Source of the DNA: a virus
DNA length: 35,859 nucleotides
Reading direction: 5' to 3' (one strand)
IMG/VR virus record: IMGVR_UViG_3300043775_000034
Location: 1-35,859 of that record
Every line of letters begins with the position of its first letter. Positions within the stretch are counted from its first letter, which is position 1. The position numbers and the translations under genes are program-made. The notes under the pieces were generated by a model that searched no databases, was not told the DNA's origin, and worked only from the letters and a program-made list of their open reading frames with translations. Positions 2,706 to 7,631 of this stretch are shown here, piece after piece.

Positions 2706-2878
2706 CGGTCGCATATCTCCTGTACGTTTTTGGTTTTTTTAGGTTTTTGACATAGCTCGCTGATTGACTTTTCTTTTGACTTGCGCTGCATTTGGTAGAT
2801 ATTGAGAGGCGCTGGCGGCAATAGGTTATAACCGCCAACGCCTATCATTGACAAGCACAAGATGATGCGGCTAATCAT
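2693..2878 (-). CDS. Small protein with N-terminal hydrophobic segment, unknown
   Basis: 61 residues. Residues about 4-20 are hydrophobic (IILCLSMIGVGGYNLL), followed by PPAP and a Lys-rich polar tail with two cysteines. It may be exported or membrane-anchored; no clean lipobox is seen. The ATG overlaps the TAG of the upstream 208-aa gene and has no good SD, so translation probably depends on coupling. Its 3' end overlaps the 31-aa membrane gene. I do not recognise the family. Confidence 0.55.
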   Translation of the reverse strand: MISRIILCLSMIGVGGYNLLPPAPLNIYQMQRKSKEKSISELCQKPKKTKNVQEICDRWKK

Positions 2879-3497
2879 GTTCGTTTATTGAATAAAACCA
2901 GTCATCTCCAGCCGTCCACTTGCGTGTGCCATCGACTGAGTAAATGGTTTTTGCTGCTTGGAAATCAGGAAACTTGGCTTGCTGGATCAGGCTTTGGTCA
3001 TACCACAGGCATCGGTTGTTGGGTTGGGCGGCAAACTGACCATTGTCTAGCTTAATGAAATTAAACGACTTATGTTCCTCAGCGGTCTCGGTAAAGCCAG
3101 TGTCAACGTCCATGCCGTCAGCACAAAAATCAACAGTGAACATATATGTCCCAAAATGCCATTGCTTATCTTTACCAAGAAACTTAACGCCAAGGTTACG
3201 CAAGCCAATCTTTTCCACAATGGTGAACCGATAGCCCATGCAATCCCACAACTGGAGGGTATCCACAGGCAGGTCACTAGCGCCCTCTTTCCACACATAG
3301 GCGTGAATGGGTAGCTTGTCGTACAAAGCGCCGTATTCGGTCAGCAGCGACTCAATCCTGAATACCTGACCCCTGATGGCTTTAAGACTGACCCACACGC
3401 AAGGCACAAGCTCGCCATGCCCTTTGGTGTGGTTGTATAGGAATTCAGCCTTGATAAAGCATTGCAAGGGCGGTAATGATGCGACAAGATAGCTCAT
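2871..3497 (-). CDS. Conserved-looking early phage protein of unknown function, 208 aa
   Basis: The ATG at 3495-3497 has AAGGAG eight bases upstream. The protein is soluble, rich in Trp, Tyr and Phe, and predicted mixed alpha/beta from its pattern; examples are LQLWDCMGYRFTIVEKIG and KQWHFGTYMFTVDFCADG. No nucleotide-binding or catalytic motif is evident. It sits in the leftward early operon next to recombination genes, overlapping its neighbours on both sides by 4-8 bases. Ends with TAG. Confidence 0.75.
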   Translation of the reverse strand: MSYLVASLPPLQCFIKAEFLYNHTKGHGELVPCVWVSLKAIRGQVFRIESLLTEYGALYDKLPIHAYVWKEGASDLPVDTLQLWDCMGYRFTIVEKIGLRNLGVKFLGKDKQWHFGTYMFTVDFCADGMDVDTGFTETAEEHKSFNFIKLDNGQFAAQPNNRCLWYDQSLIQQAKFPDFQAAKTIYSVDGTRKWTAGDDWFYSINEHD

Positions 3498-6552: not shown

Positions 6553-6705
6553 ATGACAAAACAGCAATTAGTTCAGTTGGCAGGCTCACAGAGTGAGCTG
6601 GCAAAGATTCTAGGCATTAGCCGAGTGGCGGTGTGCTTGTGGAAAGCTGTGCCAGAGCTGAGATTGCGCCAGTTAAAAGATTTACGCCCACAATGGTTTG
6701 CATAG
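6553..6705 (+). CDS. Cro-like helix-turn-helix regulator, 50 aa
   Basis: Residues about 11-36 form a helix-turn-helix: SQSELAKILGISRVAVCLWK, with the usual A-x3-G-x5-V/W spacing; the N-terminal MTKQQLVQLAG is the preceding helix. Length and build match small Cro/YdaS-type repressors. It faces the leftward operon across a 145-base control region with an inverted repeat, the position of Cro in lambdoid phages. There is no SD, so the message may be leaderless. No CI partner was found in the window, so it may simply switch off early genes in a lytic phage. Confidence 0.8.
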   Translation: MTKQQLVQLAGSQSELAKILGISRVAVCLWKAVPELRLRQLKDLRPQWFA

Positions 6706-6713
6706 GAGAAAAC

Positions 6714-6863
6714 ATGAAAAAAGCACTTTTGGCAGTTTGGTTTGCAGCATCATCCACAATGGTTTGGGCGGCTTGTTCAACCCATACCTACTATGCAAAC
6801 GGTAAGTATGTGACTTGCCAGACTTGTTGCTACGGCAACAATTGCACGACCAATTGCTACTAA
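6714..6863 (+). CDS. Secreted Cys-rich small protein, 49 aa
   Basis: Start at ATG 6714 is fixed by GGAG five bases upstream. An N-terminal signal peptide is clear: MKKALLAVWFAASSTMVWA, with cleavage likely after VWA. The mature peptide of about 30 residues has six cysteines in the pattern C-x12-C-x2-CC-x4-C-x3-C, rich in Thr, Asn and Tyr, so up to three disulfides in the periplasm. It sits in one unit with the Cro-like gene, eight bases downstream. I know no function; exclusion of other phages or binding of an envelope protein are guesses. Confidence 0.75.
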   Translation: MKKALLAVWFAASSTMVWAACSTHTYYANGKYVTCQTCCYGNNCTTNCY

Positions 6864-6881
6864 ATTTTTTCTGTGTATAAT
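6854..6881 (+). promoter_or_regulatory. Strong sigma-70 promoter ahead of structured RNA
   Basis: A perfect TATAAT at 6876-6881 with TTGCTA (4/6) at 6854-6859, 16 bases apart. The -35 lies in the last codons of the Cys-rich gene. The start point would be near 6888, exactly where the first hairpin of the RNA region begins. Confidence 0.7.
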
Positions 6882-6887
6882 TTAAAC

Positions 6888-7045
6888 CGTCTAGAGTGGC
6901 ATTTAGACGATGAATCGACAGAGAACCCCGCAGAGTACTGTGTGGTCTTGCAAGGTGGCAAGCGTGACTTTTGTCGATTCAATCGTTTAGCTGCTGCTCT
7001 CGCCAAGAGCCAAGACCACAGAGCATTTTGCGGGGTTTTTGCTTT
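6888..7045 (+). ncRNA. Structured RNA with pseudoknot, ending in terminator-like stem
   Basis: Perfect complementary arms: P1 CGTCTA 6888-6893 with TAGACG 6904-6909; A 6911-6920 with 6972-6981 (10 bp, TGAATCGACA); B 6924-6932 with 7029-7037 (9 bp, AACCCCGCA); C 6941-6950 with 7011-7020 (10 bp, TGTGGTCTTG); and a small hairpin GCTCT/AGAGC at 6996-7010. C nests inside B, but A crosses both, so the fold is a pseudoknot. B can be lengthened with G-U pairs to about 16 pairs and is followed by TTTTT, like a terminator. The region directly follows a strong promoter and precedes replication and late genes. Candidate roles are a small RNA, or an antitermination or attenuation leader. No known family is claimed. 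Confidence 0.65.
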
Positions 7046-7283
7046 TGGACAACGCAATGCGGTACGTCGATGGTTGCGTTTGAGATACCCCGATACACGA
7101 GCAAACCAGATCGGGGAGCGTGGGCTTAGTCCTAGAGCGCGGTGGTTGAAACAGTCTGGGACAGTGCGAGGCGATGACATGGCTCCGAAAGGCAAGCATC
7201 GAGGCACAGGCGAACTTTGGTTTTGACCACGGTAAGGCTGTGCTTTGCTCCAACATTCACCAAAAGGCAATAAGGGATAGAAG
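7046..7283 (+). other. Hairpin-rich leader between structured RNA and next gene
   Basis: No convincing gene in this 238-base stretch. It continues with clear hairpins: AACGCAA 7051-7057 with TTGCGTT 7074-7080, CCCCGAT 7088-7094 with ATCGGGG 7110-7116, and CGATG 7172-7176 with CATCG 7197-7201, plus TGGT/ACCA near 7218-7229. Several frames on both strands stay open, which fits GC-rich structured RNA better than one gene. It may be an extension of the RNA element or the 5' leader of the gene at 7284. Confidence 0.45.
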
Positions 7284-7631
7284 ATGACAAACTTTGAACT
7301 ATTCTGGGCTGCATGGCCTACCAGTACCCGAAAGGGCGGCAAGTCTGATTGCTTGAAGCGGTGGGAAAAGTATTATTGTGATAGCTGTGCTGACCAAATA
7401 ATCAAGCACATTGAGTGGATGAAAACCACCGACCAGTGGCGCAAAGACGGCGGTGCTTACATTCCCTCACCCGCTGTTTATCTAAACCAACGCCGCTGGG
7501 ATGGCGCTGAAATACCTGAAGTTAAAAAAACCATCAACATTTTGGACAAGCTGGCAGAAGACAGAGCCAGAGCAGTGCCAATGCCTGCTGACGTAAAAGC
7601 CCGACTGGATGCACTACGGGGTCGCAGATGA
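7284..7631 (+). CDS. Phage replication-type protein (C-terminal domain-like), 115 aa
   Basis: AAGGGAT precedes the ATG. The pattern FELFWAAWP...KGGKSDCLKRWEKYY, then IEWMKTTDQW, then GGAYIPSPAVYLNQRRWDG is the small helical module found at the C-terminus of phage O-like replication proteins and DnaT/primosome-type proteins. Here it stands alone without the N-terminal winged helix. It would help load the host replication helicase or primase; that role is inferred from the family. It begins a chain of overlapping genes ending at 8456. Confidence 0.65.
   Translation: MTNFELFWAAWPTSTRKGGKSDCLKRWEKYYCDSCADQIIKHIEWMKTTDQWRKDGGAYIPSPAVYLNQRRWDGAEIPEVKKTINILDKLAEDRARAVPMPADVKARLDALRGRR

What the first reader, a model, noticed from the sequence alone, without database searches (positions are those of the whole stretch)
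6714..6863. Secreted six-cysteine peptide cotranscribed with the Cro-like regulator
A clear signal peptide plus about 30 residues with six cysteines, eight bases behind the regulator, is unusual for an early phage gene. It needs the periplasm and could bind an envelope protein, block DNA entry of other phages or inhibit a host enzyme. I know no matching family.
Basis: partly seen in the sequence, partly recalled or inferred. Interest (0 to 1): 0.52.

Follow-up and report, generated by a model that had tools for sequence, protein, structure and literature searches.

The report
Exported disulfide-ladder phage microprotein family
Many environmental phages carry a tiny exported protein, held together by three predicted disulfide bonds and unknown to the usual family libraries, which probably acts in the envelope of the infected bacterium early in infection; what it binds is not known.

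Summary
Window 6714-6863 is a real 49-codon gene, 8 bases behind a Cro/YdaS-like regulator. The first C-C spacing is x13, not x12. It belongs to a large phage family: three IMG/VR scans each reached 137 to 545 relatives, and I extracted 176 distinct proteins. All 176 keep the six cysteines, the C-x2-CC and C-x3-C spacings and exactly one residue after the last cysteine. The mature part evolves at dN/dS about 0.05. AlphaFold gives the mature peptide as a three-stranded meander (pLDDT 92) in which every cysteine faces another: C1-C3, C2-C6, C4-C5. One clade gained a fourth in-register pair. It looks like a type I signal-peptide product, not a lipoprotein. No Pfam, NCBIfam or PDB sequence match was convincing, nor any PHROGs match; UniProt's member is called 'Lipoprotein'. 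The link to Cro is not specific: SSB-like and other genes precede it elsewhere, and 19 loci have a Cro-like/RNA junction without the peptide. It is thus an optional early cassette. Best guess: an envelope-binding accessory factor, most likely for superinfection exclusion; function is unproved. Next to it lies an apparently undescribed, widespread pseudoknotted phage RNA.

The parts
6553..6705 (+). Cro/YdaS-like HTH regulator, 50 aa, first gene of the rightward operon
   Evidence: Pfam P22_Cro 4.4e-08, above cut-off; PHROG 409 5.4e-10
6704..6709 (+). ribosome-binding site AGGAGA of the peptide gene, overlapping the stop codon of the regulator
   Evidence: read directly from the sequence
6714..6863 (+). 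peptide gene, 49 codons and stop
6714..6770 (+). signal peptide, residues 1-19, predicted cleavage VWA/AC
   Evidence: K-K, hydrophobic core, A19 in 109 of 110 49-residue relatives; no signal-peptide program was on hand
6771..6860 (+). mature peptide, residues 20-49: three-stranded beta meander with predicted disulfides C21-C38, C35-C48, C39-C44
   Evidence: AlphaFold pLDDT 91.7, strands 2-9, 12-21, 24-29 of the mature part; pairing inferred from strand register
6854..6881 (+). promoter-like TTGCTA-16-TATAAT of the downstream RNA; its first hexamer lies in the end of the peptide gene
   Evidence: consensus scan, 10 of 12; 3 found against a shuffled mean of 1.2, so weak by itself
6888..7045 (+). 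neighbouring conserved structured RNA with pseudoknot and terminator-like 3' end (not part of the peptide's function as far as shown)
   Evidence: fold z -5.4; covariation
7284..7631 (+). next gene, fragment-like relative of phage replication initiation proteins
   Evidence: PHROG 9474, 1.1e-14

Best explanation
The gene is an optional early cassette encoding a Sec-exported microprotein. After signal peptidase I cleavage (inferred) about 30 residues fold in the oxidising periplasm into a three-stranded beta meander locked by three cross-strand disulfides (predicted). It has no enzyme-like features and almost no charge, so it most likely works by binding. Its near-invariant surface, shared by phages with different early genes and by a podovirus-like and a myovirus genome, points to a conserved host envelope component as target rather than a phage-specific tail protein. 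The most likely benefit is superinfection exclusion: soon after the first genome enters, the cell is made refractory to further phage entry. Shown: gene, conservation, purifying selection, cassette behaviour. Predicted: export, fold, disulfides. Inferred: target and purpose.
For: Strong purifying selection on the mature part, dN/dS 0.045-0.056. Six cysteines, C-x2-CC, C-x3-C and a one-residue tail in 176 of 176 proteins (the core was required for extraction, and one search also required the one-residue tail, but searches did not). Length changes in 18 of 176 rows, all within the C1-C2 hairpin (16) or the C4-C5 turn segment (2), where the model puts its turns. All three cysteine pairs fall in register: with two-residue turns at mature residues 10-11 and 22-23, pairs sum to 21 (2+19) and 45 (16+29, 20+25). 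36 of 176 have two more cysteines, none has only one, and the new pair (8+13) is in the same register. Upstream gene on the same strand in 194 of 212 loci with a called upstream gene, 170 of these within 30 bases. Empty sites in 19 loci. T4 Spackle shows that a periplasmic early phage product can exclude superinfection (PMC7677548, abstract and passages).
Against: No experiment, no host, no target. The early position also fits host takeover or lysis control. Exclusion factors often track their target phages, whereas this sequence is very conserved. The 36 eight-cysteine proteins form one clade, so the paired gain is one event. pTM of both models is only 0.41. The register argument leans on a model that may itself have used cysteine pairing. 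One relative lies in what looks like a bacterial contig, so it is not strictly a phage gene.
Confidence: 0.38

Rival explanations
1. Host-takeover or lysis-timing factor: the peptide inhibits a host periplasmic protease, peptidoglycan hydrolase or assembly factor, keeping the envelope sound until lysis, without excluding other phages.
For: Export, small disulfide-locked binder, early expression context, conserved surface. Fits a conserved host target at least as well as exclusion does.
Against: No target known; optional presence says only that it is accessory.
Confidence: 0.27
2. Antibacterial or anti-competitor peptide released at lysis, acting on neighbouring cells.
For: Disulfide-laddered beta peptides are a common antimicrobial design (recalled, not from a call); one bacterial copy stands next to a WYL regulator.
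Against: Mature net charge (K+R-D-E) is 0 in 48, +1 in 127 and +2 in 1 of 176, unlike cationic antimicrobials. No immunity gene noticed.
Confidence: 0.08
3. Thiol or metal binding peptide: the cysteines stay reduced and bind metal or buffer redox stress.
For: Six invariant cysteines in 30 residues.
Against: Predicted export; every cysteine has an in-register partner; two extra cysteines came together, facing each other.
Confidence: 0.07
4. Secreted signal between infected cells, an arbitrium-like system with the HTH regulator as receptor.
For: Regulator and exported peptide side by side; weak NCBIfam look-alikes AimP (3 of 34 members, best E 0.033) and NprX (6 of 34, 0.035).
Against: Those E-values are chance level and probably driven by the signal part. 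The upstream regulator is usually a different gene. Signals of this kind diverge between phages; this peptide hardly does. The regulator has 50 residues and no room for a peptide-binding domain.
Confidence: 0.05
5. Spurious ORF conserved because of overlapping RNA or DNA function.
For: A conserved RNA starts right behind it and its promoter-like first hexamer overlaps the gene's end.
Against: dN/dS about 0.05; most relatives have no such RNA directly behind them, and 93 of 104 RNA elements have no peptide in their locus.
Confidence: 0.01

Closest known systems
UniProt A0A6J5M8Q5, 'Lipoprotein [uncultured Caudovirales phage]', 49 aa
   Same: 59% identical over full length and best fold match, E 4e-5; a member of this family already deposited without a function
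   Different: The deposited name is not supported: W or Y stands at position -3 from the first cysteine in 108 of 110 49-residue relatives, and N or T at -1 in 12 of 110, which does not fit a lipobox (lipobox rule recalled)
Unannotated ORF in MW202462.1 (Myoviridae sp. ct2t2046, Manatee Spring)
   Same: 47-residue full-length relative, all six cysteines (L228:755)
   Different: Not called in the record; an ORF on the other strand was annotated over it
T4 Spackle (gp61.3)
   Same: Early phage product, signal cleaved, periplasmic, disulfide (PMC7677548, abstract and passages)
   Different: Mature Spackle has 75 residues and an alpha-helical bundle with one disulfide; this one is 30 residues, all beta, three predicted disulfides; no sequence relation
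Surface lipoproteins for superinfection exclusion (Ltp type; abstract seen in the search listing)
   Same: Small exported phage accessory proteins
   Different: Lipid anchored and, for Ltp, in Streptococcus phages; no lipobox here
G106 C139 relative (L435:1489), 52 aa
   Same: Signal peptide, six cysteines, same motif; E 2.4e-16
   Different: In a 5,343-base contig of a bacterial assembly, between a vWA/VIT-like gene (by eye) and a WYL-domain regulator

Membership tests
T4 Spackle family | sequence match to PHROG 1586 (spackle periplasmic) | tested here: not met
   1 of 138 members at E 0.07, window member not among matches
T4 Spackle family | alpha-helical bundle after signal cleavage | tested here: not met
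   model is all beta; helical fold of Spackle from PMC7677548 passages
T4 Spackle family | inhibits incoming phage's tail lysozyme | not testable with these tools
   needs biochemistry
Exclusion lipoproteins (Ltp, Llp, Cor type; types recalled) | lipobox and lipid anchor on the first cysteine | tested here: not met
   position -3 is W or Y in 108 of 110; residue before C1 is N, T, Q, Y or V in 30 of 176 by the script's choice of C1 (one V row is an artefact)
Arbitrium AimP peptides | NCBIfam AimP model | tested here: not met
   3 of 34 members, best E 0.033; window member none
Arbitrium AimP peptides | AimR receptor next to the peptide | tested here: not met
   neighbour is a 50-residue P22_Cro/YdaS-like protein
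Any curated Pfam or NCBIfam family | hit above cut-off | tested here: not met
   none for the window peptide; over 34 members only weak scattered hits, best E 0.011 and 0.0092
PHROGs families | consistent hit across members | tested here: not met
   best is phrog_27496, 14 of 138 members, best E 0.0011, unknown function
Known small disulfide-rich folds in PDB | clear structural match | tested here: inconclusive
   best Foldseek E 0.85 for the full-length model; best VIA-align Z 3.5 for the mature model

The most novel reading that the evidence does not exclude
An undescribed family of exported disulfide-ladder microproteins is shared by hundreds of environmental phages as a swappable early cassette. 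It seals the host envelope against further phages in general, by gripping a conserved host component, rather than one rival's tail.
Probability: 0.25. Interest if true: 0.75.

Novelty: new variant of a known kind. Interest (0 to 1): 0.52.

Why it matters
Phage genomes are full of short genes that annotation skips; this one was missed in a deposited complete genome. Here is a compact family with a testable fold, strict conservation and clear cassette behaviour. If it blocks phage entry through a host component, that component becomes an identifiable weak point of infection in environmental bacteria, and a 30-residue stable binder would be a handy tool.

Tried and rejected
Cellular origin: the search for related loci on genome contigs gave 12 pattern matches, none a relative. 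In the order search 12 further genomes matched at 5.8e-4 to 0.0086; none of the loci fetched for them shows the cysteine layout in a credible ORF. Four genomes tried first gave only matches at E 0.09 or worse.

Phage collection by tblastn: 2 records at E 2, because filtering hides the cysteine-rich half; one proved to be a full relative when read. blastn with a closer relative found the same two Manatee Spring records and one 28-base chance match. The bacterial version found nothing in plasmids; the window peptide itself was not tried there.

Near phages Rhodoferax P26218, Methylophilales MEP301, Podoviridae ctfPj964 and Microcystis Mvi-Yong1342-1 were scanned whole for short exported cysteine-rich ORFs: no relative.

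Host: not settled. Terminase relatives are at most 43% identical, portal relatives at most 38%, and the best DNA match in the early region is a 117-base piece of MEP301 at 74%. I therefore do not name a host.

Structure searches gave no fold relative beyond a member of the family.

Literature: searches for this kind of peptide and for freshwater phage RNAs listed nothing that describes either; only PMC7677548 was opened (abstract and passages). Papers outside that open library were not searched.

Rows dropped before counting: from 178 candidate proteins I dropped one chance ORF on the window's minus strand and one truncated 34-residue fragment (L308); one more ORF (a diverged copy in L325) had failed the signal filter. 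The 176 remain.

Full report
What is there. The window is a 35,859-base IMG/VR virus record. At 6553-6705 stands a 50-residue Cro/YdaS-like regulator. Its stop overlaps a ribosome-binding site, and 8 bases on begins the 49-codon peptide gene. The next gene, 7284-7631, resembles part of phage replication initiation proteins. To the left and reading the other way lie an Erf-like annealing protein and a RecE/YqaJ-like exonuclease. So the peptide is the second gene of what looks like the rightward early operon; early expression is inferred from this, not measured.

It is a real gene family. I extracted 176 distinct proteins. In a 138-row alignment the six cysteines and T46 are invariant. In 176 of 176 the C2-C3 spacing is 2, the C5-C6 spacing is 3 and one residue follows the last cysteine. 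The extraction demanded the C-x2-CC core and demanded the one-residue tail, so these counts are partly by construction; the 71 proteins, found without that demand, show the same tail. dN/dS of the mature part is 0.045 and 0.056 in two identity bands; of the signal part 0.135 and 0.220. The exported half is what selection guards.

Export. Residues 2-19 look like a signal peptide: Lys-Lys, a hydrophobic core, and an A at position 19 in 109 of 110 relatives of the same length, with W or Y before it in 108. This suits signal peptidase I. It does not suit a lipobox, whose rule I recall: position -3 of the first cysteine is W or Y and -1 is often N or T. The UniProt relative named 'Lipoprotein' is thus probably misnamed. 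No signal-peptide program was available.

Fold. The full-length model has pLDDT 77 with a helix for the signal and three strands. The mature part alone, on 76 sequences, reaches pLDDT 91.7 with strands 2-9, 12-21 and 24-29; pTM is 0.41. With two-residue turns at 10-11 and 22-23, antiparallel partners sum to 21 and 45. The six cysteines then pair without remainder: 2+19, 16+29, 20+25. I inferred this from strand ends, not coordinates. Two independent signs agree. Length changes occur in 18 of 176 proteins, and all fall in the first hairpin (16) or between C4 and C5 (2). And 36 of 176 have exactly two more cysteines, at positions that also sum to 21 in the unexpanded hairpin; none has one alone. 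On a tree these 36 are one clade, so this is a single paired gain.

Where it sits. In 223 non-redundant loci the upstream gene is on the same strand in 194 of 212 with a called upstream gene, and within 30 bases in 170 of those 194. But the partner varies: SSB-like by C-terminus (39 and 12 loci), Cro-like (29), a winged-helix-like small protein (23), and others of 17, 11 and fewer; the gene after it is most often one cluster (59 loci) of replication-initiator look (names by eye). In 19 loci a Cro-like gene runs directly into the conserved RNA with 32-81 bases between, no peptide present; in the window the peptide sits between the two. The peptide is therefore an optional module, not the regulator's partner. 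A myovirus genome from Manatee Spring has an unannotated copy. One copy lies in a contig of a bacterial assembly beside a WYL regulator.

What it does. No family library, structure search or paper gave a function (papers 22, 66, 82, 94, 95). The anatomy says: exported, tiny, rigid, uncharged, no catalytic look, so a binder. The sequence hardly changes between phages with different early genes, which suggests one conserved target, more likely in the host than in rival virions. Superinfection exclusion is the best-precedented job for an early exported phage protein; T4 Spackle is the instructive case (PMC7677548, abstract and passages), though neither sequence nor fold is shared. I put this at 0.38 and a host-takeover or lysis-timing role at 0.27; the remainder is spread over weaker rivals and things not thought of.

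The neighbour. Bases 6888-7045 fold with z -5.4 over 6864-7060. Relatives turned up in other loci, some far from any peptide. A pseudoknot between the stretch after hairpin P1 and a loop inside the main stem is carried by 71 different arm pairs: 102 of 104 elements have at least 8 paired bases in a row, against a mean of 17.7 and at most 27 of 104 when the partners are re-dealt 200 times. Of 42 nested pairs in 47 sequences, 16 show changes on both sides. Rfam has no credible match in the region, nor has the phage collection by blastn. This looks like an undescribed phage small RNA. Its promoter-like first hexamer lies in the end of the peptide gene.

Verdict. Observation confirmed with a small correction. 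Interpretation partly supported. New family, plausible but unproved role.

Noticed in passing
window 6888-7045, strand +: Conserved, pseudoknotted structured RNA with promoter-like box and terminator-like end, in at least 120 viral contigs and mostly independent of the peptide; no Rfam match. 102 of 104 elements keep a pseudoknot helix of 8 or more bases with 71 different arm pairs. Probably a bigger find than the peptide.
   Followed up: partly
window 7049-7230, strand +: DNA behind the RNA's terminator is also conserved (five of the ten aligned loci carry it, at 83-88% in three), with no evident gene or tRNA.
   Followed up: no
L435:1489-1647 (G106 contig C139): Relative of the peptide in a bacterial assembly, between a vWA/VIT-like gene and a WYL-domain regulator.
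   Followed up: partly
L228:755-898 (MW202462.1): Unannotated copy of the peptide in a deposited complete phage genome, overlapped by an ORF annotated on the other strand.
   Followed up: yes
L325, L337 and one more locus, 84 bases upstream of the peptide: A 48-residue ORF that looks like a diverged tandem copy of the peptide, with a changed cysteine layout.
   Followed up: no
window 2871-3497, strand -: 207-residue protein matching PHROG 3704, labelled 'ferredoxin' under morons, at 1.5e-74.
   Followed up: no
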